Notes under the pieces: generated by a model
Database searches by the model: none
The model's input: only the letters and a program-made list of their open reading frames with translations
What the model was told of the DNA's origin: nothing
Shown here: piece by piece, positions 4,574 through 52,067 of the stretch
Layout of the letters: each line of letters starts with the position of its first letter
Position numbering within the stretch: position 1 is the first letter of the stretch
Program-made: the position numbers and the translations under genes
DNA from: a virus
Length of the DNA stretch: 53,196 bases
Direction: 5' to 3' (one strand)
IMG/VR virus record: IMGVR_UViG_3300042558_001779
Location: 1 to 53,196 of that record

Positions 4574-5869
4574 TCAGGCAGGTGCGTTGTCGAAGGTAAC
4601 TGCGACGAAAGCCTCTGGACGCTTGACTGCAAGAGCGAGACGCTGCTCAGCAAGTACAACGATTGCGTTGCGGACGAAGAAGTCTGCGTGCTGTTCGCTG
4701 ATACGGATGCTTGCTTGCTCACGGTCATACAACTGTGCGCCTGTACCGAATGCTCCGACGAGAGCGGTGCCCTCGGTCATTGCTGGGGTATCGACGACAG
4801 GGATTCTCCACAAGCGTGGCTCGCCACCAAGTGCGACAGAGACAGCAACGAGGTACTGACCATTGTCGTCCTTTGACAATTCAATGTCTTCCCAATCATT
4901 AGGGTGCAACACGATGCCTGTTGGCTCGTAGTAAGCGAGGAACGAAAGGGTTGCTGCACGACGAAGTGCGTCAGCCTTGTTGTCCTTCGTTACACCGTCT
5001 GACCAGTTGTAGGTCTGTGGGTCTGAGTTCATGATGCCTGTGAGGTTTTCGCCAACACCATTACCGTTGAGGATTTGCTCATCTTCTTGCAAACGAAGAC
5101 CGTAAAGGAGTTCGTTGTCAATGATTGAACGCAACTGTGGCTCGTCGGCAAGCACATTGCGGTGTGCTGCTTCCCAGTGAGCGAGTGTGCGAACAGGAGC
5201 CTGCTCACCAACGAAGGTGAAGCCTGACTGTGGCTTCGCAGCAAATGCTGAACCGTCGCGCTCTGCGACTGAACCTGCATTGTTGGTGAAACCAGTCATG
5301 CGGAAGTACTCAACCACTGCGGCAGTCGTGGTGCGGCTTGGGAACAAGTCACGAACACGACGGGTACGCATTGGAGGAACAACGATTGGGTCGCGCTGGA
5401 TTGAACCAAACGAGCCAGGTGTACCTGATGGCATTGAGGAGAAAACATCCTTGGTTCCCCAAAGACCAGTGACATCGCCACGGTTCAATTGGAAAGGTGA
5501 AGGCATGTTTGCGCCGTTCTTGCCGCCTTGAAGGGACTTGAACTCAGGTGAGTCAAGGAACATTGCACCAAGCGACTTCGCTTGTGGCTGTTGTGTCCAT
5601 TGACCTTGAGCAGCAGCAGCAGATGCTACTGAATCGCTTGCAGGACGGTCGCCCCACTGCTCAACATCGCGCATTCCTTCAATACCCTCGATGAGGCTCT
5701 TGATTTCGCGGATGTCACGCATGTTGTTATCGAATGCTGACTTTTGTTCAGCACCAACGATGACGGTGCCATCTTCGATTTTGAATGAGTCTGCAATTGT
5801 TTTGTTGTCCGCCATCTTGGCACGCAAGGCACCTTGTAGTTCGCGGAGACGGGATTCGTCGAATGACAT
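4574..5869 (-). CDS. Major capsid protein, HK97 fold
   Basis: This 431-aa protein builds the head shell. The first 110 or so residues form a helical, charged delta-like region, expected to act as internal scaffold and be cut by the prohead protease. The body shows the HK97 order: an N-arm and E-loop region around 150-230 (IVVPPMRTRRVRDLFPSRTT, then EYFRMT), a spine-helix region LADEPQLRSIIDNELLYGLRLQEDEQILNG split over about 245-275, then the P and A domains (LRRAATLSFLAYYEPTGIVLHPNDWEDI) and a C-terminal FVRNAIVVLAEQRLALAVKRPEAF. A strong AAGGAG RBS and its own 125-nt leader suit high expression. It is about 14 kb from the portal and protease genes, unusually far. Confidence 0.93.
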   Translation of the reverse strand: MSFDESRLRELQGALRAKMADNKTIADSFKIEDGTVIVGAEQKSAFDNNMRDIREIKSLIEGIEGMRDVEQWGDRPASDSVASAAAAQGQWTQQPQAKSLGAMFLDSPEFKSLQGGKNGANMPSPFQLNRGDVTGLWGTKDVFSSMPSGTPGSFGSIQRDPIVVPPMRTRRVRDLFPSRTTTAAVVEYFRMTGFTNNAGSVAERDGSAFAAKPQSGFTFVGEQAPVRTLAHWEAAHRNVLADEPQLRSIIDNELLYGLRLQEDEQILNGNGVGENLTGIMNSDPQTYNWSDGVTKDNKADALRRAATLSFLAYYEPTGIVLHPNDWEDIELSKDDNGQYLVAVSVALGGEPRLWRIPVVDTPAMTEGTALVGAFGTGAQLYDREQASIRISEQHADFFVRNAIVVLAEQRLALAVKRPEAFVAVTFDNAPA

Positions 5870-7534: not shown

Positions 7535-10153
7535 CTATTCCCTTTCATCTCTTGGGTCTGCTGAAATTTCATTCTTCTCCAGGTAAAAGGCACCGCTGCT
7601 AAATGGCATATTAGTAAGGAACCAATCTTTGATTTCTTGTTCCCTATCTTTTTTGGCTTGTCCTACTTCATTATTGCTCAAAGCATAGATGAAGTCCATG
7701 TGACGAACAGAGTTAGGGTCTGCTTGCTGTTTGCGAATTAGGTATTCAATCAACTTTGCATCATCTTCATTTTTGATAATGCTTTGTCTTCCACCCCTAA
7801 AGGCTGCTAGTTGTCTTTCCATTCGGCTAATTCTTGCTCCAAGATTGCCTGGGTCTTCAAAGCCCATTCTTCCCCAAACATATGGACCATCATCAACAGC
7901 ACTAACACTAACTTTTTCAAATCCAGCAGCACGGGCATACATCCATGAGTGCTGGTTGTAGATTGTTGCAATGCCAGAGTTTTTATGCTTGGCACCTCTA
8001 ATAAACATAGTGTTGTGATAAATGCGGTCACTTCCCGCATAAATCGTTCTTCCACTGCTGCCTACTGTTTCCCAACTACCATCATTTTTTTTGTGCTCAA
8101 TGCGAAGTCCGATAGAAATTTGTCCATCTCTTTCCACATAGGGAGGATTTTCTAGAACAATTCTATATGTTCTTCCATTTGTGCCCTTAATCTCATCATG
8201 GGTATACATTGCTGTAGCCCATTCGCGTAATTGACGCTCAGCATCCAGTTTTTCTTCAGGCGTGCCGTTTCTGAGTTTTTGAACAAGTTCCAGTCTGCGC
8301 TCTTGGGTCATTTCCTTCCAAGGAGCGTTACCTTTTCCATATCGTTCGTCGAGATATTTAGAAAGAACCTTTTTTCTGTTTTTGATGGCATCCTTAACTC
8401 GTTTGTTTGCTGCTGCAGCAACATCTGGCGCAAGGTCCTCAGGCACTGCGGCAGCAGGCTTATTAACAGCATCTTGATTATTAAGCAACGCTACAGCACG
8501 GTCAGCAAAAACATCGCGACGCATTGCTGCATCTTTCAAATTAGCGTTAATATTGTAGATTTCTCGTGCAATTCGCTTTCTTTCAGCAGCATCTGGTTCG
8601 TTTTCAAAACGAAGCATTGCTTCTCTTAACGCTTTTCGATATTCCTGCTTTCGGTCATTAAATTCGTTGGCATTTTGAATAACATTTTCGCGAGGAGAAT
8701 TTGCAATTTCATTAAACCGTACCAACGCATCTCGCTCATAAATTAGGCGATTTTCTCTGTCTCTTGGTGTCATGGCCCAATCTTCATTGCGGTAAAGGTC
8801 ACCCAATACGCCATCAAGTTCATTCCAATCAATGCCGTCGCCAACATTAAGTCTTCCAAATGCTTCCCAATCTGGCTGGTCTTTACCACCTGCGGCTCCA
8901 GCCTTTGGTGCTTTGTCACCAGAAAGTTCTTCTAAACGATTCTTAAATGCGTTACGCCGATTAAGAGCCATCGCATAGTCTCTGTTCTTCTGCAGAATCT
9001 TTATCTGCATAACCTCAAAGTCGTTATTGTTTGCATCTGGACCATCCGCTCTCATCTTGTCAAGAGCATCTTGGAGTTCCCTCTTAGCCTCTTTTACATA
9101 ACGGTCCTGATTTTCAATGTTTCCGCGAAGTTCAGCAAGGTTCTCTTTACCCCACGCATTCATATCTCTCAAAACATTTTTGCGAGCAACCTCAATTTCG
9201 TTCTGTGCTTCTTCAATATCATTCTTGCTTAAACCAGCAAACCGTGAAAGTTCATCAGCATTAAGAGGTTCATCACCAACACCAATAAATCCAGCGGCAC
9301 GAATCTTTTCACGCACAGGATTTTCTGCCTCTGGCTTGACGGCTGGTTTTTTAGGCTTTGCCACCAACTTAGGTGGTTCATCATTTCCACCAGCAGCAGG
9401 AGTGACACGACGAGCAGCAGCCTTCTTGGCAGGTGCCTTCTTCTTGACTGCCTTCTTCTTTGCTGCAGCCTTTTTGACTGGAGCCTTCTTTGCAGGCGCT
9501 GGAGCCTCTGGAGCATCAACTTCGGGCTTTGGCTTCTCTCTTGTTACCTGTTGTGTAGCAGGTCGACGACGAGCAGCAGGGGCATTGGGTCGTGGACGAC
9601 GGGCAGGAGGAACATCGCCTTCACCAGTGCGAGGAGCGCCAGGCTGGTCAATTTCTCTCTCAATACGGCGCAACTCTGAATCACGGAAATTTGGCTTTCG
9701 GCTACGCTGAACTTTTCCACCACCGCGTCTAGTGCGTGGTGCTTTAGGTGCTTCTACTGTTTCTGTGCTGTCTAATGCGTTGGCAATACCTCGGGCTGCT
9801 CTTTCAAGTCTTCCGCCTTCTTGCATTCTCCGTACTACACGCTCGTTGCGACGATTCACACGACGACCGCGACGACGGTCTCCAATATTTTCAAGACGCT
9901 CGCCAAGGTCGGAAATTTCATTTGCTAATCGACGAGAAACACCCCAGCCACAGTTACGACCGAAACGGTCAGTGATTTGACCACCGTAACGAGTACCTGG
10001 CGGGCAACGCCAACCACCCCGACGATTAGTGCCAGGGATTGCAAGGCTGTCGTCAAATACGGCGCGTGTTCTTTTAACTTCGTAGGCAATTGATGATGTA
10101 TCACGCTCTGAAATAAAAGATTTTGCTCTGTATGTAGATATTTCACGGAGCAT
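7535..10153 (-). CDS. Large tagged protein with H1-like linker and C-terminal GNAT-like domain
   Basis: In this 872-aa protein, residues 1-110 carry the head-operon tag. The 20-residue module R49-C50 to C68 (RCPPG, QITD, NCG) sits in a block almost identical to one in the 980-aa protein. Residues about 110-250 are Arg/Pro-rich and then a Lys/Ala run (about 214-250, KKA repeats) resembling histone H1 tails. Residues about 270-620 are long charged helices, probably coiled coil. Residues about 640-780 look like a GNAT acyltransferase fold: SIGLRIEHK strand, NSGIATIYNQHSWMYARAAGF helix, SVSAVDDGPYVWGRMGFE strand. The classical Q/RxxGxG/A loop is poorly kept, so catalysis is uncertain. I infer a packaged DNA-bound effector or structural protein. 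Confidence 0.7.
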   Translation of the reverse strand: MLREISTYRAKSFISERDTSSIAYEVKRTRAVFDDSLAIPGTNRRGGWRCPPGTRYGGQITDRFGRNCGWGVSRRLANEISDLGERLENIGDRRRGRRVNRRNERVVRRMQEGGRLERAARGIANALDSTETVEAPKAPRTRRGGGKVQRSRKPNFRDSELRRIEREIDQPGAPRTGEGDVPPARRPRPNAPAARRRPATQQVTREKPKPEVDAPEAPAPAKKAPVKKAAAKKKAVKKKAPAKKAAARRVTPAAGGNDEPPKLVAKPKKPAVKPEAENPVREKIRAAGFIGVGDEPLNADELSRFAGLSKNDIEEAQNEIEVARKNVLRDMNAWGKENLAELRGNIENQDRYVKEAKRELQDALDKMRADGPDANNNDFEVMQIKILQKNRDYAMALNRRNAFKNRLEELSGDKAPKAGAAGGKDQPDWEAFGRLNVGDGIDWNELDGVLGDLYRNEDWAMTPRDRENRLIYERDALVRFNEIANSPRENVIQNANEFNDRKQEYRKALREAMLRFENEPDAAERKRIAREIYNINANLKDAAMRRDVFADRAVALLNNQDAVNKPAAAVPEDLAPDVAAAANKRVKDAIKNRKKVLSKYLDERYGKGNAPWKEMTQERRLELVQKLRNGTPEEKLDAERQLREWATAMYTHDEIKGTNGRTYRIVLENPPYVERDGQISIGLRIEHKKNDGSWETVGSSGRTIYAGSDRIYHNTMFIRGAKHKNSGIATIYNQHSWMYARAAGFEKVSVSAVDDGPYVWGRMGFEDPGNLGARISRMERQLAAFRGGRQSIIKNEDDAKLIEYLIRKQQADPNSVRHMDFIYALSNNEVGQAKKDREQEIKDWFLTNMPFSSGAFYLEKNEISADPRDERE
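9850..10100. repeat. Duplicated tag-coding segment, copy 1
   Basis: This DNA codes for the first 100 or so residues of the 872-aa protein. It is clearly related at the nucleotide level to 12690-12970 in the 980-aa gene. Long stretches match base for base (for example CGAAACGGTCAGT and CTGGCGGGCAACGCCA), and the differences fall mostly at third codon positions. The two copies are direct repeats about 2.85 kb apart. Confidence 0.8.
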
Positions 10154-10446: not shown

Positions 10447-13389
10447 TTAACTTCCGATGATGAGGTCTGCAATTGATGATGCACTTAGCGAAAGGAAGAA
10501 ATCAATTCGTTGCTGAGGCTCGTCAATAAGTTTTCTTTGTTCGGTGTTTCCGACAACATGTCTTTGTGCGCCACGAGCAAATTCATCAAATTTCAAATCT
10601 CTCTGGCTACGACGCATATTATCTTGCATATCTTGTACTACGCGAGCAATTTCATCGCGTGTTACTTGATTTCTTTGTACTGACTGACGGAGACGGGCAA
10701 GCATGTCATTTCTCCCACCACCGCGATGGCTTTCGAGGAATGCTGCCAGACCTGCTCTGTCTGCCATTGCGCCATTCCAGTTTGCATACACCTCAGCATT
10801 GAAGCCTAAAGATGGGTCAATTGGAACAAACCTGTTTTCCCCATTTTGTTCGGCAACGAAGTAGTTGCCCGCATGTCTGTCGACATTAACAATAAGGTAG
10901 TCAAGAATTGTGGCGCGAACTTTATCTTCGTTAGATACTTCACCGCCATTTCGTGGAGATTTGATATCCCCCTCAATGTAGTTGCCAGCATGTTCGAACA
11001 AGATTGGTCTTAAAGCGCCGTGCCTGTCATTCTTTAGCGGACCAGCGAATCTAAATTCTCCAACGGGGAAGCCGAGTCTTGCTGCCATGTTGTTACCGAG
11101 GATTTCGCGAATGTCTTCACCTTTTGCAGCACGACCATTTTCATACTTTGTATAGTATTTTTTACCGTTTGTACTATCTTCAAATAGGAACATGTTGTCT
11201 GCAATTTGACCATTTACTCCTCCGCCAGCGGCTTCGCGTTTGAAACGCTTGCCTGGACCAGAGTTGTCATGCAGTGCTTTAAGCACGAAATCGTCTGGGA
11301 CATCAGCAATGTCACCGCCATTAGCAACATGGAGAATTGCGTCAGCCTCAGTGTTCATTCCCTTGTTTCCGACTGGAACGCCACCCCATCCAGGGAAACC
11401 ATCTTCGCCAATTGGGCCAAGTTTTCTGTCGCCTCTCTTGGAGCGAAGGAATCCTCGTGCCGCCTGAGCAATTTTTGCCCCTCGTCTTGTCTTTGCTTGC
11501 GCTGGTGGAGACGGAGGTGTAATTGCTGCTGGAGATGGGGTGTCGGTGAGAACAGGGGGGACTTGAGAACGACGAGGACCAGGGCGTGGTGGTTCATTGT
11601 GAACATCGAGATTTGCACCATTAGCGTTCGCTCTGTCGACTTCTGCCTTTGACACGACATAGTATTTGCCGTTGTGCTTAACGATTTTGTAATCACCGCG
11701 TTGTGCAGGATTTTCTTGTTCAATAAATTCGCGCTTGCGCCGTGCTGCCGCTAGGTCGTTTACGCCACGCTGACCAGGAGCGTTGAATGGCTTGCGCTGA
11801 CGACGGGCAGGTTGGTTTGCGTCTGGGGCATCGGCAGGCTTTGGACGGCGTGTTGCTGTACGGGCTGCACCAGCATCTGTTGCTGTGCGGCGAGCGCCAC
11901 GACCTGCGTTTCTCTGCTGGGCACGATTCCAGTTTTCTTCAACTGCTGGTCCGTGGAACTGGTCCCATTCTTCGCGTCTTAAAAATCCAGCGTTGCCGCC
12001 TGCTTCGTTAATTTCGCGCACACGCTGTTGGTGTTCGTTGAATTTGCGTGTCTTGTATTGTTCAAGTGTTTCGCCTGCTCGTGGTGCGCCAGCAGGTACT
12101 GGGGTTCCGCTTACATTGTCAACTTGTGGTCGACGGGGTTTGCGTGGTTGGCGCTCAGGGACGATATCTCCTGGGCGAGGGCGAACGCCTTGTCCGCCAC
12201 CATCTAGACCATTTGGGTATCTTCCACCAGGAGGGATTACACCCTGACCGCCGTTTGGCAGAATGTCTGGTCGACGGGGTTGGCGGGGTTGGCGTGGCTT
12301 AGCAGGGCGAGCCTGTGGAGCCTTCGGTCTCTTTGGTGAGGGCGTAACTTCACCAGGAAGTTTTGGGTCGCGGATTCCACGACCGCCACCATCAAGACCT
12401 CGTGGTCTACGAGGGCTAGGCGTTCCGTTTGGCACTGTTTCTTCGCCGTTCCATCCTTCTCTGAAACCTTCGATGAATGCACCTACAGCGCCACCTCTAT
12501 TGCCTCTACGGCGACGACGACCGCCATTGTTGTCTGAGTCCAAAGCGTCTCCAACACGACGGGCAGCACGCTCAAGGAGACCAGTACCACGAGGCTTTGA
12601 AGAATCAGGGGTATCTACACCTGGTCTGTTTGTTACATCAAGTACATCTGCAACTCCACGGGCTGCTCTCTCAAGACGACCACCTTGTGCTAAACGACGA
12701 CCAACGCGCTCATTGCGGCGAGATACTCGGCGTTCACGACGCTTGTCTCCGATGTTTTCTGCACGCTCACCGAGGTCAGAGATTTCATTAGCCAAACGAC
12801 GGGCTACACCCCAGCCACAGTTACGACCGAAACGGTCAGTAATTTGTCCACCGTAGCGAGTTCCTGGCGGGCAACGCCAGCCGCCTCTACGATTTGTACC
12901 TGGAATAGCAAGACTGTCGTCAAAAACAGCACGAGTACGCTTCACTTCATAAGCAAATGTTGATTTATTTACATCAGCAATAAAAGATTTTGCTTTGAAC
13001 TGAACAGCATTGCGCCATTCGCTATTTTCAAGATAGTCAAGACGGGCATCCATCAAAGAAATGACTGGCACAAGTTCGGCAGATTTTTCTTCTTTTGCTG
13101 ACTCGACTGGTTCAACTTCTTGAGTTTTCTTAGACTTGGCAATTAACTCGTCAATCTTTGCTTTGTTTGCACGATTTGCTACGACTGGACCTTCAACATC
13201 CATTGAGTTATCAAGAGTTGCGGATAGTTCCTGTTTTGTTATTGTACGAGCAGCGTATTCATCTTTCATCCATGATGCCCATGTCGTGGATGATTCAGCA
13301 AGTGGGTAGAACTCTGTTCCTCCAGCAAGAAGCGCAACTACTGCGTATGGCTTCCCTGTCTTGTCTTTGATAATGAACGCTGATTTCAT
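10447..13389 (-). CDS. Large tagged protein with intact kinase-like C-terminal domain
   Basis: This 980-aa protein begins with a compact domain of about 100 residues, an acidic linker and the tag module (R172, C173 to C191). A very long basic Pro/Gly/Arg-rich, presumably disordered stretch follows (about 230-680). From about 690 the kinase-like region starts: an ADAILHVANGGDIADVPDDF segment, a glycine loop GGGVNG near 723, a YYTKY lysine, the catalytic loop D837-R-H-A-G-N842, and the metal-binding IDPSLGF with Asp858. This order and the DRHxGN...IDxS signature are those of the HipA/PI3-kinase-like branch of the protein-kinase fold. The substrate is unknown. The start is the ATG at 13389. A TTG four codons upstream is open but overlaps the preceding gene. 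Confidence 0.75.
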   Translation of the reverse strand: MKSAFIIKDKTGKPYAVVALLAGGTEFYPLAESSTTWASWMKDEYAARTITKQELSATLDNSMDVEGPVVANRANKAKIDELIAKSKKTQEVEPVESAKEEKSAELVPVISLMDARLDYLENSEWRNAVQFKAKSFIADVNKSTFAYEVKRTRAVFDDSLAIPGTNRRGGWRCPPGTRYGGQITDRFGRNCGWGVARRLANEISDLGERAENIGDKRRERRVSRRNERVGRRLAQGGRLERAARGVADVLDVTNRPGVDTPDSSKPRGTGLLERAARRVGDALDSDNNGGRRRRRGNRGGAVGAFIEGFREGWNGEETVPNGTPSPRRPRGLDGGGRGIRDPKLPGEVTPSPKRPKAPQARPAKPRQPRQPRRPDILPNGGQGVIPPGGRYPNGLDGGGQGVRPRPGDIVPERQPRKPRRPQVDNVSGTPVPAGAPRAGETLEQYKTRKFNEHQQRVREINEAGGNAGFLRREEWDQFHGPAVEENWNRAQQRNAGRGARRTATDAGAARTATRRPKPADAPDANQPARRQRKPFNAPGQRGVNDLAAARRKREFIEQENPAQRGDYKIVKHNGKYYVVSKAEVDRANANGANLDVHNEPPRPGPRRSQVPPVLTDTPSPAAITPPSPPAQAKTRRGAKIAQAARGFLRSKRGDRKLGPIGEDGFPGWGGVPVGNKGMNTEADAILHVANGGDIADVPDDFVLKALHDNSGPGKRFKREAAGGGVNGQIADNMFLFEDSTNGKKYYTKYENGRAAKGEDIREILGNNMAARLGFPVGEFRFAGPLKNDRHGALRPILFEHAGNYIEGDIKSPRNGGEVSNEDKVRATILDYLIVNVDRHAGNYFVAEQNGENRFVPIDPSLGFNAEVYANWNGAMADRAGLAAFLESHRGGGRNDMLARLRQSVQRNQVTRDEIARVVQDMQDNMRRSQRDLKFDEFARGAQRHVVGNTEQRKLIDEPQQRIDFFLSLSASSIADLIIGS
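12690..12970. repeat. Duplicated tag-coding segment, copy 2
   Basis: This is the second copy of the tag-coding block, in the 980-aa gene (about residues 140-235). It corresponds to 9850-10100 in the same orientation. The encoded segment KRTRAVFDDSLAIPGTNRR and the tag that follows are identical in both proteins, while the DNA has drifted mainly at silent positions. That points to an older duplication kept by selection on the protein. Confidence 0.8.
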
Positions 13390-13390
13390 A

Positions 13391-15598
13391 TTAGATTCCA
13401 AGCAATTTTATTGTCTGCTGTTTTCCACGGACAAGCCTGTCAAGGCGTAATGTAAACAGTTTTTTGAGAATTTCTAGGTGAGCCTGTTCTGAGCGGGAGA
13501 GGTTTCCATCTGCCGAGAGACGACTTGCGTATTCGTCCCATTTAAATTTCTGTGCTCTATCGATAAGGGTATCATAAATACCAAGTAGTTCATTTCTCTC
13601 TTTGGGAGAAAGAGAGCCGAATCTGTCTTTGTAAATTTTGCTACTGCGATTTTCAATATATGTTGGCAGGTCGATTTTGAATCGCTCAGCAATGTCTTCG
13701 GCACTCAGACCAGAGAGCGCTGAAAGTTCATTTCCTGATGGGACGACAATAAGTTTTTGCTGTGTGCGCACTGGACGCAGTGTTGCTGGGGAACGGTCAC
13801 GAGCATCTGTCAAGTAATCTGCCATAAATACGCGAAGCATGTCTTCTGCGGAAACCTTGCTGAAAGGTTGGTCAAAATCAATACGGTTGCCATCGTTAGC
13901 GACATCGCCAATAAATGATTCACGCGAACCATCTTTGCCAATAAACCTAACTGCTGGTGTCGGAATACCTAACTGTGAAGCAACATCTGAATAGTATCTC
14001 TCTGCGATGGAGCCATTCTTTTTAGTTTCAGGAACTTGGTAATAAGTCTTGCCAGAACCATCTGAATACTCAGTAACTCCAGTACCCAACTTGCGAGATT
14101 GATACTTCTTGCTACGACGCATAGCATCAGACAAAAATTCAGGAGAAATATCAAACGGGTCTCCGCCGTTATCAATCAACTCAACAGCGTCAGCAAGGTT
14201 CTCTGGAGCATCAGAAACATTAGCCCCATCCTCACGAAGAGTTTCTTTCTCCACGCGGGCAGAAAGTTTACCAGTCTTGCCGCTGTCCTTCATGAAGGTT
14301 TCATAAACCCAACGGCGAACTTCTTTTTTATTGCCATTAGCATCTTCAACTTCAATCAAATCAAGAGGCTTGGGAACATTGGGAAACTTCTCTGAATATT
14401 TGAAAGCACCGCCAGAACCATTAGCAAAATCACGAATGTTATTACCGACATCATATTGGTCACTGGCAGCAGCAACATTGTTCAACTGGCGACCGAACTT
14501 ACGGCGCTCACCAACAGTTAAATCACGCTGACGCTCAATTGAAAGAACGGAACCATTTGGTGTTACATAAGCAACTTGACGAATTGCTGGACCAGATAAT
14601 AGAGCAAGGTCATCACCAACGATGTCGGTTGGCTTTGCAATAGAGCGAACAAAAACGCCATTTTCCATGTCAGGGTTGCCGCCAAAGTTACGCAAAACAG
14701 AAGAAGGGACAAGAGACCTCAGGATGACTCCATCCTTACGGATTAGGCGTGACTCTCCAGCGGGGGAGCCAGTAATACCTGAAATAACCTTAGCCACATT
14801 GGCAGCCCGAACTGTAGGATTTTCAACAGCACTACGGGGAACCTTCGCCATACGCATAATCTGAATTGCACGACTTTGTTCTGGAGTCGTACCCTCTACA
14901 ACCTCTGAAACATCCTCAGCCCGTGCTCTAGCAATTGCGGGCTTATCTCCGCGCAAAGAGTTAACCGCGGCATTGAGTGCAAGTTCAAACAACTGTGCTC
15001 CACAGGTGCTGTAGTTTCTGTCTGTAAATCTACCGCCATGCTGGAAACCTGCTGGACAGCGATATCCGCGTTCACCGTTTGGGCGAGGAATTCTACGGCC
15101 TCCACCGCCACCAGGAACCAGTGCTGAATAAATGCGCGAACGGATAGGGCTGCGAATTCCTGAAATGTCGCCAGGTATTGCAGCAGTTCCAGCCGCTTGT
15201 GCTGCTTGACCAAGGCGGCTCTGTGAACCAATCAACCCAACTTTTACCTGAATTTCTTCGCTTGTTTGTTTTACTTGGACATCTGCGCCGATTCGTGGCT
15301 TTGTTGTGCGAGTAAATGCTGCAGCCTTAAAGTTGAGAGCGTTCTTATTGTTTTGTAGTTCTACTTGATTGCGAAGAATTGCTGACTTTGAACGGATGTA
15401 GGGTTCAAGCGGTCGCTTGATTGCTGTTTCGCCATTGACAAAATGACGGGTGCTTTTCGACTTTTGACGGCTTGGGTAAAAATCAATTGTGCGATAGTTG
15501 TCTACTGCAACTGTACGGCGTACTACTGCGTCTTTGAGCATGGTCGGACGATGATGACGCAAGAGGGAATTAATTGAACCATTGGAGTTATTTATCAT
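13391..15598 (-). CDS. Large tagged protein with degenerate kinase-like domain (pseudokinase)
   Basis: This 735-aa protein has a basic N-terminus, then the tag module (R180, C181 to C199). A middle domain of about 270 residues (220-480) has no recognised family. The C-terminal half aligns with the two intact kinases: ADAVELIDNGGDPFDISPEF (about 475), then LGTGVTEYSDG in place of the glycine loop (about 508), YYQV in place of the lysine strand, D601-RSPAT in place of DRHxGN, and VPSG in place of PID exactly 21 residues after D601. The catalytic loop keeps only the first Asp-Arg and loses His, Asn and the metal Asp. I infer a catalytically dead paralogue, perhaps a regulator or structural partner. 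Confidence 0.72.
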   Translation of the reverse strand: MINNSNGSINSLLRHHRPTMLKDAVVRRTVAVDNYRTIDFYPSRQKSKSTRHFVNGETAIKRPLEPYIRSKSAILRNQVELQNNKNALNFKAAAFTRTTKPRIGADVQVKQTSEEIQVKVGLIGSQSRLGQAAQAAGTAAIPGDISGIRSPIRSRIYSALVPGGGGGRRIPRPNGERGYRCPAGFQHGGRFTDRNYSTCGAQLFELALNAAVNSLRGDKPAIARARAEDVSEVVEGTTPEQSRAIQIMRMAKVPRSAVENPTVRAANVAKVISGITGSPAGESRLIRKDGVILRSLVPSSVLRNFGGNPDMENGVFVRSIAKPTDIVGDDLALLSGPAIRQVAYVTPNGSVLSIERQRDLTVGERRKFGRQLNNVAAASDQYDVGNNIRDFANGSGGAFKYSEKFPNVPKPLDLIEVEDANGNKKEVRRWVYETFMKDSGKTGKLSARVEKETLREDGANVSDAPENLADAVELIDNGGDPFDISPEFLSDAMRRSKKYQSRKLGTGVTEYSDGSGKTYYQVPETKKNGSIAERYYSDVASQLGIPTPAVRFIGKDGSRESFIGDVANDGNRIDFDQPFSKVSAEDMLRVFMADYLTDARDRSPATLRPVRTQQKLIVVPSGNELSALSGLSAEDIAERFKIDLPTYIENRSSKIYKDRFGSLSPKERNELLGIYDTLIDRAQKFKWDEYASRLSADGNLSRSEQAHLEILKKLFTLRLDRLVRGKQQTIKLLGI

Positions 15599-15962
15599 TT
15601 TTTTGAGTTCCCATATTTTTGTCCATTTCCATAAGCACTATGTCTATTGGTGACATTTGGCGTTGAGCATCAAGTTCTAGTTCCTCTTGACGGTTGCTTT
15701 CATCTTGTCGGCTAATTTGAGCGCGAACTGTGTTCAACATAGATTCTATATCAAGAGTGACTTCCCCAATTTGACTATCTTGATAGGGGAAGCGATTTGA
15801 AATTCTTTCTAAAGTGCTGTATGCGTCACGCTTTAATAATTCTTTCATCTCTTTACGGATTTTTATGTTATTGCTTACAACTTCGATACTGCCATTATCG
15901 TCTACAAAAACAATTGGCGCAAAGGGGGTTGTTCCATCTGAACTGACTAGTAAAAATCTCAT
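15588..15962 (-). CDS. Hypothetical protein between kinase-like genes
   Basis: This 124-aa protein begins with a beta-rich stretch (RFLLVSSDGT, APIVFVDDNGSIEVV, about 1-35). Two charged helices follow, with ERISNRFPYQDSQIG near 53-67, and a Met-rich acidic end. No motifs are recognised. The start is the ATG at 15962, 7 bp after the stop of the kinase-like gene, with a GAGG upstream. An in-frame TTG two codons earlier would overlap that stop. Its own stop overlaps the pseudokinase start by 11 bp. Each large tagged protein is followed or preceded by a small protein like this one, which may be a specific chaperone. That is inference. Confidence 0.6.
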   Translation of the reverse strand: MRFLLVSSDGTTPFAPIVFVDDNGSIEVVSNNIKIRKEMKELLKRDAYSTLERISNRFPYQDSQIGEVTLDIESMLNTVRAQISRQDESNRQEELELDAQRQMSPIDIVLMEMDKNMGTQKNDK

Positions 15963-15968
15963 TACCAA

Positions 15969-17438
15969 CTATGCCTCACTGCTGACTACTGGCATTTTTT
16001 CTCTATCAAATTCATTAATTTTTTCTTTACCTATGATTTCGGTAAATAAATCTTGAGCGCTTATAGACCTTGCGTATTCAAGACGCAAAATTGAATCTTC
16101 GATTTGTTTTCTTTTAGAAACAGCATTGAAATCATCAAACGCTCCCACATCTCTTTGTGTTTGCATTTGCTCAAAAACAGCAATTAACTCATCTGCCTTT
16201 CTGCGTAATTCATCCGTATTTATTTCTTTTAGTCGCGTTTGTATGTTCCTAAGCGTTTCGAGCGCCTCGTCGTTTGCTACATCTTCAAAATACGCTTGTT
16301 TAAATACTTCAACCATTATATCTGGTCTATACATGTCGTCAAAAAGAGCATCGTTCCTTGCATTTGAATCAAATCCAAGCGAGTTGTCGATGGGCACCAT
16401 GTAACTAACTCCGCCGTCTGTTTCAAGCAAAAAGTTTCCAGTATGCCTATCTCCATTGACCATAATTGAATCAAATAATGCAGTTGTCCATAAAGACTCT
16501 TTGTCAATATTTTCTGGTGTTTTAGTAATAGTGTAAGGTCCAAAATTCCTTTCAACACTATGGATTTTACCAGACCTGCGATTATGCACTAGTTCTGACA
16601 CAAGAGTAACGCCATTGTATTCTGCTGGAACAATACGCATCGGTATTGGTTCAAAACCTAGCGCTTGAGAAAAGTGCTCACCCATTACTTCGTTTAATGG
16701 TTCTGCAATATGAAACGATGGTGCTTCTTTATATTTATAGCCAATCATGTTCCCCGTAATCGTGTCTTCGAGGCGTGTCATTCCATTTACACCACCACCC
16801 GAACCAATGACTTTAAAACGCGGTTTACGACCAAAAAGTCCTATTCTCCCAGAGTTTGAAACAATCGCAGCCATTAGGTATTCATCTGGAATATCAGACA
16901 ATGAACCACCGTCTCCAATATGTTTAATTGCATCAGCAGAGGACTCAATAACTTTTGACTCCCCAGTTTTGGGGTCTTTAATTATTGCGCCAGAAGGAAC
17001 TGGTTTAATTTCAAGACGACCAGCAGCATCAGAAAATCCGACACCAGAATCAACAATTTGTTTTTCATCTTTACTTGATTTAGGTCTCAAAAATCCTCTA
17101 TTGAAACCGCCAGCCAACTTTTTTAACCCATCAGCGGCAGCACGCGCAGCCTCATTTGCTGCTGTTTGTGCGCTTGGAACCATACAGTTAGACATATTTA
17201 TGTCTGTGAACTGATTGGCATTAGGGGTTCCTGCTGGGCATCGCATCTTGCCGTTTTCGTCAACAATAACGCCTGCACGCCGAGCAGAAGTTACACCTAC
17301 AGAAGGAACACTATTGTCTTCCCGCAATGACCGTCCAAGAAAACCTTTTGTGCGGATGCCGTCGCCTACAGACTTAAATGCTGCTGCAGCCTTCACTACC
17401 CTCTGAGTGGGGTCAAATGGTTGTTCGTAGACAGCCAC
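15969..17438 (-). CDS. Tagged protein with intact kinase-like domain (shortest member)
   Basis: This 489-aa protein is the most compact of the tagged set. The tag module is R66, C67 to C85 (RCPAG, QFTD, SNC). After a linker come SADAIKHIGDGGSLSDIPDEY (about 163-183), the glycine loop GGGVNG near 216, a GYKYK lysine strand, the catalytic loop D330-R-H-T-G-N335 and the metal-binding PIDNSLGF with Asp351. The spacing between the two Asp residues is 21, as in the 980-aa protein. The C-terminal 110 residues are helical. The start is a GTG with an AGAGG ribosome-binding site 8 bp upstream. It is a kinase-like protein of the HipA/PI3K-like type, with target unknown, probably virion-associated by position. 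Confidence 0.75.
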   Translation of the reverse strand: MAVYEQPFDPTQRVVKAAAAFKSVGDGIRTKGFLGRSLREDNSVPSVGVTSARRAGVIVDENGKMRCPAGTPNANQFTDINMSNCMVPSAQTAANEAARAAADGLKKLAGGFNRGFLRPKSSKDEKQIVDSGVGFSDAAGRLEIKPVPSGAIIKDPKTGESKVIESSADAIKHIGDGGSLSDIPDEYLMAAIVSNSGRIGLFGRKPRFKVIGSGGGVNGMTRLEDTITGNMIGYKYKEAPSFHIAEPLNEVMGEHFSQALGFEPIPMRIVPAEYNGVTLVSELVHNRRSGKIHSVERNFGPYTITKTPENIDKESLWTTALFDSIMVNGDRHTGNFLLETDGGVSYMVPIDNSLGFDSNARNDALFDDMYRPDIMVEVFKQAYFEDVANDEALETLRNIQTRLKEINTDELRRKADELIAVFEQMQTQRDVGAFDDFNAVSKRKQIEDSILRLEYARSISAQDLFTEIIGKEKINEFDREKMPVVSSEA

Positions 17439-19129: not shown

Positions 19130-21163
19130 TTAGTGGTTTTCCTTGTTGTGCAATTCTTTATACGCGCTTAACGCATTAATCATTGCACTCTTTGCTTCTG
19201 ACGAAACACTACTACCAAAGTAGATTCCTGTCTCGTCAACTTGCGAATCAATTTCGTGGAACTCAAGGATTGGGTCAATGAGTGCTTTCACGCTGAAAAG
19301 CGAGGCAATAGGTGCAGTAATTCTCATTTCACCATTTGACTTAACTTGTACGACTGGTTCTTTTGATGGCGCTGATGCAGCGACAACTTCTTGAAGGATT
19401 TCCATAGCCTGCTGAAGTTTCTGCAGGTTGCGATTGCTAATCATGCGACCAGCCTTCGTCTGCATTTCTTCGTCAATAGACTTACCAAGTTGTGAAAGGA
19501 TTGACATAAGTGCCGAAACTGGCTTTGGCTTATCTTTTCCTCCGCAACCACAACCACAGTCATCCTTGTCTTCCTCGGTGTCCATACCCATTCCGTCACC
19601 CATATTGCGACGGTGAATGACAATCATTCCCTTTTCGTCATCGCCAGCATGTTCCCAGTTATTTTTGTCTTCAACAAACTTGGCAAATTCTGGTTGCTCA
19701 GCAAGGAATGCTTTAAGCATTTCTGCTGCTTTACCTTCAATTTGACCAGGAGTCATGGATGACATATCTTCGTCTTCCATCATGTCCATTCCCTTTTCGG
19801 CACCTGACGGGATGCGACTAAGACGGTCGTTCCACTCGCGGTCATTCCAGATAGAACCGTTAGAAACTCCACGAATCTTGTTGCGGCAGTTCTTCATGCC
19901 AGGATGGTGACATCCTTCGTTAGGCCAAAGACCAGTAGTTTCATGATGCAACCATGCGCAAATACGCTCAAGTGGGTACAACTCTGGGTGGTCAGCAAGA
20001 ATTACTCTGCAACGACGGAATCCGCCTTCGCGCTTCATGATTGGACGCCAGTATTTCAGCAATGCTTCAAGGTTTCCGCGACGAGGACCGCGACCTTGGA
20101 GGACATCTCCAGTGAAGTTTTCCTGAGGAATACCCACAGCCTCGGGTGCTTTTACAGATGGCTCATTGAGAGGAATGTCAACTGACTCGCTTCCGCCACC
20201 CGAGCATGATGCGCACTTGCAAATCTTTGGCTTAACGCCTTCTGGCAGTCCTGGATATTCTTCCATTTCGCGCTGGTATTGACGCATTACGGGATTGCCA
20301 TTTCTTTGAGGCATCTCTTCTTCGTTGTCATCATTTTCGGCATTTAAGTAAACAGTCTCTGGCTTTACCTTTACTGCGCTGCCAAACATGAACTCATCGC
20401 CATCAAAATGGTAGGTGACGCGCAATGTCTGCTTGTTTCCATCTTTGTCCATATGGTCGAAGATGACCATGTTTTTATCTGATGTGCGGAGGCGTACTGC
20501 ACCACCAAAACGCATAGCAAGTGCTTTTGCCAGGTTTGCTTGGCGACCCATTGCTGGATTTGCTGCTGGAACTCCGCCATCTTCGCCGCGTGGACCAGTG
20601 TAATCTGCATCATCATCTTGCTCACGGAGAGATTCATCTGACTTGATTGAAATGGTGCTTGTAAGTTGGTTTGCGCCGTGGAGAACTGGTGAAACTTCGT
20701 AAAGTTCTACTTCACGGAGGAGGTTTGCTTGACGCTGTGAGTCATAGTCGGCATTAAGGGTTTTGTAACCGATTGACCATTCCTGTTCTTCTCCAAAGAA
20801 TGCAACATCAGCAAATGCTTGACGACCACGCTCAGATTTAAGGTTGAACTGAACTCGTGCGTAGAGTCCGCCGATGCCAGCACGCTTCATCTTCATTGGG
20901 AGACGAGGGTCATTTGGTCCAACTTCGTAGATTTCAATGACTTTCCCGATTGGTTCGTTCCAGTTATGCCCCCAAACAACGCGAGGCTTGCGGCGCTTGA
21001 GGCTTTCAGTAAAGCAACCAGGGAGACAGATGTCGCCAACGCTGTCTTTATTTCCAAGACCTGCTACGAAGCACTCAATGATGCCTTCTGCCTCGTCAAT
21101 GTTGACTTGCCCTTGCATCGCTTTGTATTCGGTACCAGACAGTGCGGCATTATCATGAGGCAT
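19130..21163 (-). CDS. Prohead protease (HK97 gp4-like) fused to a long Cys-rich scaffold-like region
   Basis: The first 190 of 677 residues form the HK97-type prohead serine protease: catalytic His66 in VVWGHNWNEP and Ser130 in EWSIGYK, the same places as His65 and Ser112 in HK97. It would cut the capsid delta domain and itself during maturation. The rest is unusual. A module at about 375-430 (RRCRVILADHPEL, ICAWLHHETTG, CHHPGMKNC) is rich in Cys and His. An acidic linker and a CGCGCGG cluster follow near 537, then a helical end (about 555-590) like a scaffold. The ATG has a GGAG site 8 bp upstream. A protease-scaffold fusion is plausible because no separate scaffold gene is visible. Confidence 0.88.
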   Translation of the reverse strand: MPHDNAALSGTEYKAMQGQVNIDEAEGIIECFVAGLGNKDSVGDICLPGCFTESLKRRKPRVVWGHNWNEPIGKVIEIYEVGPNDPRLPMKMKRAGIGGLYARVQFNLKSERGRQAFADVAFFGEEQEWSIGYKTLNADYDSQRQANLLREVELYEVSPVLHGANQLTSTISIKSDESLREQDDDADYTGPRGEDGGVPAANPAMGRQANLAKALAMRFGGAVRLRTSDKNMVIFDHMDKDGNKQTLRVTYHFDGDEFMFGSAVKVKPETVYLNAENDDNEEEMPQRNGNPVMRQYQREMEEYPGLPEGVKPKICKCASCSGGGSESVDIPLNEPSVKAPEAVGIPQENFTGDVLQGRGPRRGNLEALLKYWRPIMKREGGFRRCRVILADHPELYPLERICAWLHHETTGLWPNEGCHHPGMKNCRNKIRGVSNGSIWNDREWNDRLSRIPSGAEKGMDMMEDEDMSSMTPGQIEGKAAEMLKAFLAEQPEFAKFVEDKNNWEHAGDDEKGMIVIHRRNMGDGMGMDTEEDKDDCGCGCGGKDKPKPVSALMSILSQLGKSIDEEMQTKAGRMISNRNLQKLQQAMEILQEVVAASAPSKEPVVQVKSNGEMRITAPIASLFSVKALIDPILEFHEIDSQVDETGIYFGSSVSSEAKSAMINALSAYKELHNKENH

Positions 21164-21279: not shown

Positions 21280-21600
21280 CTATTTGTAGTGCTTCTCTAG
21301 AATCTTGGTAAGAGATTGCTTGCTTGTAGCACCAATAACCCTGTCGACTTCTTTGCCATTGACATAAACAATCATCGTAGGGATGCTCATAATCTCCATA
21401 GATTCTCCAAGAGAAGTGTTCTTGTCAACATTTACAGCAGCAAAAGAAACTTCACCCGATAAATCAAATGAAATATCCTCAAGAATTGGTGCCATCATCT
21501 TGCATGGTCCACACCATTCAGCCCAAAAGTCAACAACAGCAACGGAGTTGTTGTTGATGAAGTCATCGTAAATGGATTGTGTAAGTTCTGGAAGAGCCAT
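21280..21600 (-). CDS. trxA: Thioredoxin
   Basis: This 106-aa protein has the full thioredoxin fold signature: DFWAEWCGPCK with redox Cys30 and Cys33, buried Asp24, and the cis-proline at Pro74 (SIPT). It is a cytoplasmic disulfide reductase. Its start overlaps the portal gene stop (TAATG), so it is translated with the head proteins, between portal and protease. Two partners are likely. One is the phage class II ribonucleotide reductase, whose C-terminal Cys pair needs a thiol donor. The other is the many Cys-cluster proteins of this operon. Both are inference. About 115 bp follow before the protease gene, without a clear terminator. Confidence 0.95.
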   Translation of the reverse strand: MALPELTQSIYDDFINNNSVAVVDFWAEWCGPCKMMAPILEDISFDLSGEVSFAAVNVDKNTSLGESMEIMSIPTMIVYVNGKEVDRVIGATSKQSLTKILEKHYK

Positions 21601-23798
21601 TAGTCAAACTTCAATCTGCATCGACAGTTAATCGTCAAATTAATAGGAGCAAGCGGGTCGCCAGGGAAACGAAGAGTTGCATCGCTCACTGGGAATCCAT
21701 CTTTAATGTCAACGGTTTTGCCGTGGAGGAGAATATGTTCTCCACGAACTCGTGAATCGCGACGGGTAACCCATGTTTTTGTTGCGCCGCCCATTCTAAT
21801 CCCACCAAAGTATGTTCCAGCGTTATATGAAGTTTGCGACTCTTGCTCTGCAATTGTGCGCTTACGCTTTCCGAGAAGGTTTGCAAAGATTGCCCCAATG
21901 GCAGCCTTCAGCATGCTCAACCTGTCTTCGTCTTCATCAAGAGCCATAGCAATCAGAATTGCTGCAATGATTTCCTCTTTGGTTGTTGTATTTGCCTTTT
22001 GCACACGAGCAATCTGGTCATCTACAACCTTTTCAACTTCTGCTTCTTCAACATCTGGTGGCATACCTGTTCTTTGACCAGCGAGAGCAATAGCATCTGT
22101 TGCAATTGATTTGAGCATCGGGCGAACATCTTCGTCTAATTGCTTTGCCCAAACCTCTGTGTCAAAGATTGCATCAACTTCTAAAGTCTTTGATGCCAGC
22201 GCCTTGCGAGCCTTGGCACCAAAAGCCTTCTCTGTTACAACCCTTTGTTGACGCTCAAAGTATCGCTCAAGGTTACGGTCAAGAATTTCTGTCCATCTAT
22301 CAGAGTCTTGCTCTGCCTTAACATCCCACTCATCATCGGCAACAAAAGCACTCTTGTACTCAATTCCACCAAACTCTGCGCTCAAAGCACCTTCAGGCGT
22401 CGGAGCAACGGTCGTTTCAAGACTTGTTGGTGCTGTTTCTGGCGTTGGAGGAATACCAGCGGCTGCCAACTCCTCTGGTGAAACCTCTGGAGAATTCATC
22501 GGGAGCCCTTGAGGGCCAGCAGGTGCAGCAGCGCCTGCAGCCATATCAACAGGCTGTTGCTCTTCTGGCTTAAACGGCTTCTCTGTATTGGCAATTGGTG
22601 TTTGGTTAGGATTCTGAAGAAGACTGTCTGCAAGTTCAGAGTCAACCTTTTTCTTCCCAGTGCCATCACGATACTCATTGACGCTAATAAGTCCCTGCTG
22701 GAACTCATCCATCAAATAACGCTGACGCTCCTGTTTTGCAACAATAAGAATTGGAACACTGCTTGTATCAAAATCAACATAGTATTTTTCGTCAAGGTCA
22801 TCCAATGCGCGAGCAAGAGAATCAAGGTGAGGAAGCATTGTTTCCATCCAGAAAACACGCAACTCTTCGCCAGCATTAGAAAAAGTACGACCAGCGGCAT
22901 TGCCAATAGCAGACTCTGGAACACCAAAAGCAGAAAGAATTTCTTCCTTAGTGATTTGACGCATTTGCGTATATGCGGCATCTCGTGGAGAAGCCGAAGT
23001 GTCTACGAAGTCAACGCCGTCGTCTGATGAAATGACTGTTGTCGCGCCAGTTCGTGAGAGGTTTCCACGGAAGCGGTTGCGCAATTCGTCCTTGTCGTCA
23101 TCGTCCATCTCTCCACGAACAACAAGAAGACCACCAGGGCGACCATCGTTGAGCAGGTAGTTGCGGTTGTACAACTTTGCCAAGTTTTCAATCTCGATGG
23201 CTACGCCAGCAGATTCCATTGGAGTGATTGAAAGATATGGGTCAAGAGGGTGTGGGCGACGAACCCAAATAACATCCTCTGGCTTGAGGATTACTTTTGT
23301 CCCATTGCGCATATCAACTTCAAAACCTGAAACAAACCTTTTAGGGTCTGGAATTGGCTTGGTGTGCTGTGGTGGCAGAAGATGAAGCCCAATAATACGA
23401 CCATCACGACCGCGCACTTTTTCGATAAATGCACCACGACTGCTCATCAAGAGTTGTGCGGAAAGGCGATAACGGAAAATAAATGAGTTTTCACCAGGGT
23501 TTGACTTTGAGTTCAGGATGTCAAGAAGCGAATCATTCTTGCCAACGATTGCACCCTGAGGAGAGTTGTCCTTCTTCAAGACCATTGGAAGACGGGCTTG
23601 GTTTCCAGCAATTGCGTCAATACAACGGAAGACCCAAGTTACCTTTTGGACGCCTTCACGGTATGCGCGTTCAATATCCCACGCATCGCTATATGGCCTC
23701 CCAGCAAAGGAAGGGTTGAAAGCAACGGGTGCGCCAGCATTAAGCACTGATTTTTCATCAAACCCGTTTAGCGACTTATTGGAACTGTTCCATGCCAT
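21600..23798 (-). CDS. Portal protein fused to a MuF-type head protein
   Basis: In this 732-aa protein, residues 1-400 are an HK97-family portal, the ring at the head vertex through which DNA passes: VFRCIDAIAGNQARLP near 56-72, LLPPQHTKPIPD, then the stem and crown with TKEEILSAFGVPESAIGN (about 285-303) and ERQRYLMDEFQQGLISVNEYR (about 375-395, split here by motif). After a Pro/Ala-rich linker, residues about 490-732 form a MuF/SPP1 gp7-like domain ending in the signature WVTRRDSRVRGEH (about 678) and NCRCRLKF at the very end. MuF proteins are normally separate minor head proteins, and the fusion puts one copy per portal subunit. The RBS is AGGAAACG. Confidence 0.92.
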   Translation of the reverse strand: MAWNSSNKSLNGFDEKSVLNAGAPVAFNPSFAGRPYSDAWDIERAYREGVQKVTWVFRCIDAIAGNQARLPMVLKKDNSPQGAIVGKNDSLLDILNSKSNPGENSFIFRYRLSAQLLMSSRGAFIEKVRGRDGRIIGLHLLPPQHTKPIPDPKRFVSGFEVDMRNGTKVILKPEDVIWVRRPHPLDPYLSITPMESAGVAIEIENLAKLYNRNYLLNDGRPGGLLVVRGEMDDDDKDELRNRFRGNLSRTGATTVISSDDGVDFVDTSASPRDAAYTQMRQITKEEILSAFGVPESAIGNAAGRTFSNAGEELRVFWMETMLPHLDSLARALDDLDEKYYVDFDTSSVPILIVAKQERQRYLMDEFQQGLISVNEYRDGTGKKKVDSELADSLLQNPNQTPIANTEKPFKPEEQQPVDMAAGAAAPAGPQGLPMNSPEVSPEELAAAGIPPTPETAPTSLETTVAPTPEGALSAEFGGIEYKSAFVADDEWDVKAEQDSDRWTEILDRNLERYFERQQRVVTEKAFGAKARKALASKTLEVDAIFDTEVWAKQLDEDVRPMLKSIATDAIALAGQRTGMPPDVEEAEVEKVVDDQIARVQKANTTTKEEIIAAILIAMALDEDEDRLSMLKAAIGAIFANLLGKRKRTIAEQESQTSYNAGTYFGGIRMGGATKTWVTRRDSRVRGEHILLHGKTVDIKDGFPVSDATLRFPGDPLAPINLTINCRCRLKFD

Positions 23799-47230: not shown

Positions 47231-52067
<4,837 letters not shown>

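What the first reader, a model, noticed from the sequence alone, without database searches (positions are those of the whole stretch)
13391..15598. A pseudokinase next to two intact kinase-like paralogues
The 735-aa protein keeps the order of the kinase region, but each catalytic element is changed. The glycine loop is disrupted, the lysine strand reads YYQV, DRHxGN has become DRSPAT, and the metal-binding Asp has become Gly at exactly the same spacing (21 residues after the Asp of the loop). This looks like a retained, catalytically dead copy and not random decay, since the 735-codon frame is intact.
Basis: partly seen in the sequence, partly recalled or inferred. Interest (0 to 1): 0.72.

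Follow-up and report, generated by a model that had tools for sequence, protein, structure and literature searches.

The report
Conserved pseudokinase in phage head-gene cluster
An uncultured tailed phage, and at least eight relatives, keep a kinase-shaped domain that has lost its key catalytic residues but is tightly preserved by selection, encoded directly beside intact-looking kinases that are swapped between phages, which points to a non-phosphorylating helper in a set of proteins probably carried in the virus particle.

Summary
The 735-aa gene (13391-15598, minus) ends in a domain (aa ~465-735) homologous to the kinase domains of the 489-aa and 984-aa neighbours (profile-profile P 97%, E 4e-11). 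AlphaFold gives it the same atypical-kinase fold, matching CotH, PI4KII, HipA, CtkA and Fam20. All 22 related kinases aligned keep the catalytic Lys, Glu, Asp, His, Asn and metal Asp; all 9 orthologues of the finding lack Lys, His, Asn and metal Asp. They form one clade, are strongly conserved (dN/dS 0.05 in the one unsaturated pair), and have new invariant residues clustered in the former active site. So it is an old, selected pseudokinase, not decay and not a recent copy. It lies between prohead protease and capsid genes, directly before a kinase gene. The kinase domain is swapped even between close relatives (L016/L017) while the pseudokinase stays. Most likely it is a non-catalytic docking or regulatory domain in a virion-packaged effector set resembling 'polyvalent proteins'. 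Packaging, binding and function are inferred, not shown. Novelty: new variant of a known kind.

The parts
13391..15598 (-). 735-aa protein of the finding (slot B): N-terminal region, CP-x-G motif, conserved core, C-terminal pseudokinase
13394..14206 (-). pseudokinase domain, aa ~465-735
13781..13798 (-). DRSPAT, former catalytic loop (aa 601-606)
13721..13741 (-). PSGNELS (aa 620-626), replaces the metal-Asp strand (VPIDNSL); P, N, E, L, S invariant in 9 orthologues
14033..14044 (-). YYQV (aa 519-522), strand that carries the ATP-binding Lys in the kinases
14282..15268 (-). conserved core of the 735-aa protein (aa ~111-439), also found in 2300-3070-aa giant proteins of distant relatives that lack the pseudokinase
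15002..15061 (-). RCPAGFQHGGRFTDRNYSTC motif (aa 180-199), a form of which is present in the slot A-D proteins of the relatives
10447..13401 (-). 984-aa protein (slot C): CP-x-G module plus intact kinase domain (DRHAGN). Listed start TTG 13401 overlaps the 735 gene; an ATG at 13389 follows its stop by 1 nt
15969..17438 (-). 489-aa protein (slot A): RCPAGTPNANQFTD motif plus intact kinase domain (DRHTGN)
7535..10153 (-). 872-aa protein (slot D): CP-x-G module nearly identical to that of the 984-aa protein; C-terminus looks like an acetyltransferase (by eye only)
15588..15968 (-). 126-aa protein between slot A and slot B; overlaps the start of the 735 gene
19130..21163 (-). prohead serine protease (Peptidase_S78, E 8.5e-12)
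21600..23798 (-). portal protein with C-terminal MuF domain
4574..5869 (-). major capsid protein (HK97 type)

Best explanation
The 735-aa protein is a conserved component of a head-gene cassette. Its C-terminal domain is a kinase of the HipA/CtkA/CotH/PI4KII/Fam20-like atypical fold that lost phosphotransfer chemistry, most simply once in the ancestor of this phage lineage, and was then kept for a non-catalytic job. Shown here: homology, predicted fold, loss of four catalytic positions in every orthologue, one clade, purifying selection, new invariant residues in the old active site, fixed gene order (protease - slot A - pseudokinase - kinase - slot D - capsid), close spacing to the next gene, and swapping of the neighbouring kinase domain. 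Inferred: the cassette proteins are built into the virion and delivered with the DNA, like polyvalent or MuF-type effectors; the pseudokinase works as a docking or regulatory module that holds or positions the cassette's kinase activity, or their common target, through a feature shared by the interchangeable kinases or by the constant N-terminal module of slot C, and not as a partner fitted to one kinase. Confidence in 'selected pseudokinase' is about 0.95; in 'virion or effector cassette' about 0.75; the stated confidence is for the docking/regulatory mechanism.
For: Homology and fold. Catalytic residues: 22 of 22 kinases keep D, K, E, D, H, N, metal D (R in 21); 0 of 9 orthologues keep K, H, N or metal D; pseudokinase clade 100/100. 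Selection: L014/L015 dS 0.88, dN 0.044, omega 0.050 in the pseudokinase against 0.082 in the core. Site re-use: 9 of 26 invariant residues fall in 23 of 271 positions of the old active-site loops, hypergeometric p 6e-5. Context: S78 protease, portal-MuF and capsid genes around it, same order in relatives. Slot C is a kinase in 7 of 7 genomes where it is readable to the end, in several lineages, and starts within about 20 nt of the pseudokinase stop. Swap: L016/L017 core 86%, pseudokinase 75%, slot-C motif module 95%, slot-C kinase 32%. Precedent for packaged multi-enzyme effectors beside virion genes: PMC5512222.
Against: No evidence of binding to any kinase. Distant relatives have the core and a kinase in one giant protein without any pseudokinase, so kinase function in the family does not need it. 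Virion packaging is not shown; no cultured relative of the 735-aa or 489-aa protein was found. The domain could equally bind a capsid or host factor unrelated to the kinases.
Confidence: 0.45

Rival explanations
1. Dedicated allosteric activator of the next-door kinase, as pseudokinase Fam20A is for Fam20C in the same fold group.
For: Pseudokinase gene always directly followed by a kinase gene where readable; Fam20A binds and activates Fam20C (PMC4421793); 5yh2 (Fam20C1-Fam20A complex) is among the fold matches.
Against: The slot C kinase is replaced by distant lineages while the pseudokinase stays (several kinase clades); giant relatives carry kinases without it.
Confidence: 0.2
2. A re-made active site: the domain binds a ligand or catalyses another reaction (as kinase-fold proteins SelO and SidJ do, from general knowledge), using the new invariant residues.
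For: Invariant D594, D598, R602, S603, N623, E624, S626 cluster in the old active site, p 6e-5; strong purifying selection.
Against: Lys, Asn and the metal Asp are gone; the loop Asp601 itself varies (G, S, N in three orthologues). Conserved residues could equally form a binding surface.
Confidence: 0.17
3. A purely structural domain of a minor head protein, the kinase fold kept only as a building block.
For: Conserved together with the core and located among head genes, unlike the exchanged slot A and C domains.
Against: Does not explain why invariance concentrates in the old active site or why a kinase gene always follows.
Confidence: 0.12
4. Keeper or inhibitor that silences the kinase in the producing cell or inside the capsid.
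For: Adjacent, closely spaced gene order, as in toxin-antitoxin logic.
Against: The same kinase swapping as for the activator; both proteins carry the same motif type, as if routed alike. No direct evidence.
Confidence: 0.05
5. Random decay, assembly error or chance resemblance.
For: None beyond the loss of motifs itself.
Against: Nine orthologous lineages, omega 0.05, one clade, fold match.
Confidence: 0.01

Closest known systems
Polyvalent proteins of phages and conjugative elements (Iyer et al. 2017, PMC5512222)
   Same: Large proteins with disparate enzymatic domains encoded next to virion genes and proposed to be packaged and injected; include peptidases, kinases, GNATs, ParB-like domains; cassette-like variability; an inactive domain (PBECR in Mu gp30) is also reported there.
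   Different: In the window the domains are split over separate genes sharing a CP-x-G motif; the kinases are of the HipA/PI4KII/Fam20-like type, not the truncated Ser/Thr/Tyr kinase described there; no pseudokinase turned up in the passages read.
Fam20A/Fam20C pseudokinase-kinase pair (PMC4421793, PMC5865150)
   Same: Pseudokinase and kinase paralogues of the same fold group.
   Different: Animal secretory pathway; Fam20A keeps the ion pair, catalytic Asp and metal Asp and lacks a Glu, whereas here Lys, His, Asn and metal Asp are all lost; no binding shown.
HipA / HipT toxin kinases and CtkA of Helicobacter pylori
   Same: Fold and DRHxxN...D catalytic pattern of the active neighbours.
   Different: Pfam HipA_2 score below cut-off; the pseudokinase lacks the pattern.
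MuF-linked polymorphic toxins (PMC3482391)
   Same: Variable enzymatic C-termini attached to a constant head-associated N-terminal part (general knowledge of the family; paper listed, not read).
   Different: The constant part here is a CP-x-G module on separate proteins, not the MuF domain.

Membership tests
Pseudokinase (kinase-fold domain lacking catalytic motifs) | Kinase fold | tested here: met
   AF2 model, aa 468-734, Z 13.9 to CotH, 12.5 to PI4KIIalpha, 11.4 to HipA and CtkA
Pseudokinase (kinase-fold domain lacking catalytic motifs) | One or more conserved catalytic motifs lost | tested here: met
   Lys, His, Asn and metal Asp absent in 9 of 9
Pseudokinase (kinase-fold domain lacking catalytic motifs) | No phosphotransfer activity | not testable with these tools
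   Needs an enzyme assay
HipA family kinase (active neighbours) | Pfam HipA_2 gathering score | tested here: not met
   16.4 and 18.0 bits against a cut-off of 27
HipA family kinase (active neighbours) | Catalytic Lys, DRHxxN, metal Asp | tested here: met
   Both window kinases keep all of them
HipA family kinase (active neighbours) | HipB-type HTH partner gene | not tested
   The adjacent 126-aa protein was read, not scanned against a library
Polyvalent protein | Several disparate enzymatic domains in one polypeptide | tested here: inconclusive
   One effector domain per window protein; fused in relatives: NUDIX plus kinase in L045 (Pfam), GNAT-like (by eye) plus kinase in L026
Polyvalent protein | Encoded with virion components | tested here: met
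   Between S78 protease and capsid genes in the window; same order in relatives
Polyvalent protein | Packaged and injected with DNA | not testable with these tools
   Needs virion proteomics
Fam20A/Fam20C-type pair | Pseudokinase binds and activates the paralogous kinase | not testable with these tools
   Only single-chain prediction was on hand
Fam20A/Fam20C-type pair | Pseudokinase and kinase paralogues encoded in the same genome | tested here: met
   Every contig where the next gene is readable to its end (7 of 7) has a kinase there

The most novel reading that the evidence does not exclude
A phage lineage carries in its virion a constant pseudokinase that serves as a universal adaptor or regulator for interchangeable injected kinases: a pseudokinase-kinase system of phages in which the active partner is a swappable cassette and the old active site has become a binding site.
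Probability: 0.22. Interest if true: 0.85.

Novelty: new variant of a known kind. Interest (0 to 1): 0.58.

Why it matters
Pseudokinases are known mostly as regulators in eukaryotes; the literature searches here found no pseudokinase described in a phage head-gene cluster. This one has nine natural variants, adjacent intact kinases, a known fold and clear candidate residues, so the question whether a pseudokinase controls kinases it did not co-evolve with can be tested directly. It also adds HipA/PI4KII/Fam20-like kinases to the domains of proposed phage-delivered effectors.

Tried and rejected
Decay or artefact: rejected by the orthologues and omega. Recent duplication of the neighbours: rejected, as the pseudokinases form a separate clade with a long stem (the root is not known, so 'one loss' is the simplest reading). 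A protease cleavage signature K[SA]..F as proof of virion processing: rejected as unspecific; the pattern also occurs repeatedly in the tail genes. Sequence kinship with the 4624-aa protein of Streptomyces phage Gilgamesh in the same genomic slot: no match to the kinase or core profiles. Matches in cultured phages for the 735-aa and 489-aa proteins: none. Relatives of the 735-aa protein in bacterial genomes: none (a scan limited to two peptide patterns). PDB sequence profile of the pseudokinase: no relevant hit, while the kinase profile finds CtkA, Fam20 and HipA. A literature search for pseudokinase + phage + virion + HipA gave no paper. Complex prediction could not be run (single-chain tool, two jobs). 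The fold of the core domain (aa 111-439) was not identified; its model was only searched together with the pseudokinase, which filled the list.

Full report
What is there. The window is a 53-kb virus record. It encodes a portal with a MuF domain, an S78 prohead protease and an HK97-type capsid protein on the minus strand. Between protease and capsid lie large proteins without library annotation, among them the 735-aa protein of the finding, a 489-aa and a 984-aa kinase-like protein and an 872-aa protein. All four carry a motif of the form RCPxGxxxxxx(F/I)TDxxxxxC.

Check of the observation. The reading frame is open. The C-terminal domain of the 735-aa protein aligns with that of the 984-aa one at 28% identity, E 3e-07; profile against profile the match covers 254 columns, P 97.2%, E 4.2e-11. 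DRHxGN is DRSPAT, the metal Asp is Gly622 and the Lys strand reads YYQV, as stated. The kinase profile alone finds the 735-aa protein at E 7e-06.

Conservation. Scans of IMG/VR gave eight further distinct orthologues (L014, L015, L016, L017, L019, L020, L023, L024; near-duplicates set aside), 41-65% identical overall and 37-58% in the domain; a scan with the domain alone found the same lineages. Every one lacks Lys, His, Asn and metal Asp, while all 22 kinases aligned keep D, K, E, D, H, N and D; one kinase (L035) has Asn for the Arg of DRH. The pseudokinases are one side of a branch with 100/100 support and a stem of about 2 changes per column. For L014/L015, the pair with the least saturated silent sites, dN/dS is 0.050 in this domain; other pairs are saturated or nearly so and were not relied on. 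Nine of the 26 invariant residues lie in 23 of 271 positions that form the old catalytic and metal loops (p 6e-5); these windows were chosen from the kinase anatomy after the alignment had been seen, so the p value is indicative. The chemistry appears gone, but the site is still among the most constrained parts.

Fold. The model of the 984-aa kinase domain (pLDDT 84, pTM 0.87) matches PI4KII (Z 14.6), CotH 13.9, CtkA 13.4 and HipA 10.7. In the model of the 735-aa protein (mean pLDDT 65; about 70-90 in most of aa 465-735) that domain matches CotH (Z 13.9, rmsd 3.5 A, 233 residues), PI4KII alpha 12.5, HipA 11.4, CtkA 11.4 and Fam20 11.2, well above the other kinases at about 5. The order of helices and strands is the same in the two models, except for two short strands. 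The N-terminal 180 residues are modelled with low confidence.

Surroundings and evolution. The order protease - 468-aa protein - slot A - small gene - pseudokinase - slot C - slot D recurs in the relatives, as far as the contigs reach and with variation in the small gene. Slot A is a kinase in the window, L014, L015, L023 and L024; the kinase profile does not find one in L016, L017, L019 and L020, and the L019 protein shows HEXXH and ParB-like motifs by eye. Slot C is a kinase in all seven genomes where it is readable to its end, starting a few bases after, or overlapping, the pseudokinase stop. Its kinase domain comes from several clades. L016 and L017 have cores 86% and pseudokinases 75% identical, slot-C motif modules 95% identical, but slot-C kinases only 32% identical: the active domain was exchanged and the pseudokinase was not. 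In more distant phages (L026-L045) the core stands, in most, in proteins of 2300-3070 aa that also hold the second CP-x-G motif and, in most, a kinase domain, but no pseudokinase; L043 has the core in a separate 568-aa gene.

Mechanism. Shown: homology, loss, selection, predicted fold, synteny, swapping. Inferred: packaging and delivery, by position and by likeness to polyvalent proteins (PMC5512222). The constant presence of a kinase after the pseudokinase speaks for a functional link; the exchange of that kinase speaks against a partner fitted to one kinase; the constraint on the old active site speaks for a binding or other site there. A docking or regulatory role that tolerates different kinases fits all three, but is not shown. 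A Fam20A-like dedicated activator (PMC4421793), a new activity, a structural block or a keeper remain possible.

Host. The portal's nearest cultured relatives are actinobacterial phages at about 40-44% identity; a contig binned as an Acidimicrobiia MAG has a portal 69% identical. An actinobacterial host is likely but not shown.

Novelty. No Pfam, PHROGs or NCBIfam family covers the 735-aa protein, cultured phages give no match and no paper on such a protein was found in the library searched. Related proteins exist unannotated in public data: the BFVD hit A0A6J5RTP4, 'uncharacterized', is 42% identical over 430 columns. Pseudokinases, atypical kinases and phage effectors are all known kinds; this is a new variant.

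Noticed in passing
L026:9575-17965, L027, L028, L031, L033, L036, L037, L045: Distant relatives encode 2300-3070-aa proteins fusing the conserved core, a second CP-x-G module and a kinase domain (L045 also a NUDIX domain, E 3.5e-12; L026 a GNAT-like stretch by eye). Gene fission or fusion relative to the window.
   Followed up: partly
window 19130-21163 (C-terminal half) and N-termini of the giant proteins (e.g. L026:9575-9900): The stretch RGPRRGNLE.LLKYWRPIMK...RICAWLHHE.TG.WPNEG sits in the C-terminal half of the prohead protease in the window but at the N-terminus of the giant proteins: a shifted gene boundary.
   Followed up: no
L046:16682-30277 / L047:479-14353 (Streptomyces phage Gilgamesh gene 48): A cultured phage has a 4624-aa hypothetical protein between its portal-MuF gene and capsid gene, the same slot, without sequence match to the kinase or core profiles.
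   Followed up: partly
window 15588-15968: 126-aa protein between slot A and the pseudokinase; by eye resembles the N-terminus of the 984-aa protein; a different small protein stands there in L016, L017 and L020, tracking the slot A type.
   Followed up: partly
window 7535-10153 and 10447-13401: The CP-x-G modules of the 872-aa and 984-aa proteins are nearly identical while their C-termini differ, as expected of recombining cassettes.
   Followed up: no
L019:6868-9651: Slot A protein of 927 aa with HELFH (zincin-like) and DGYVIDGHHRW (ParB-like) motifs by eye; no Pfam match.
   Followed up: no
window 47274-52067: 1597-aa protein with long collagen-like GxT/GPT repeats in the tail region.
   Followed up: no
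window 4574-5869, aa ~97: QAKSLGxMFLDSPEFKSL in the capsid protein, conserved in relatives, looks like a prohead protease cut site (from general knowledge of HK97-type capsids).
   Followed up: partly
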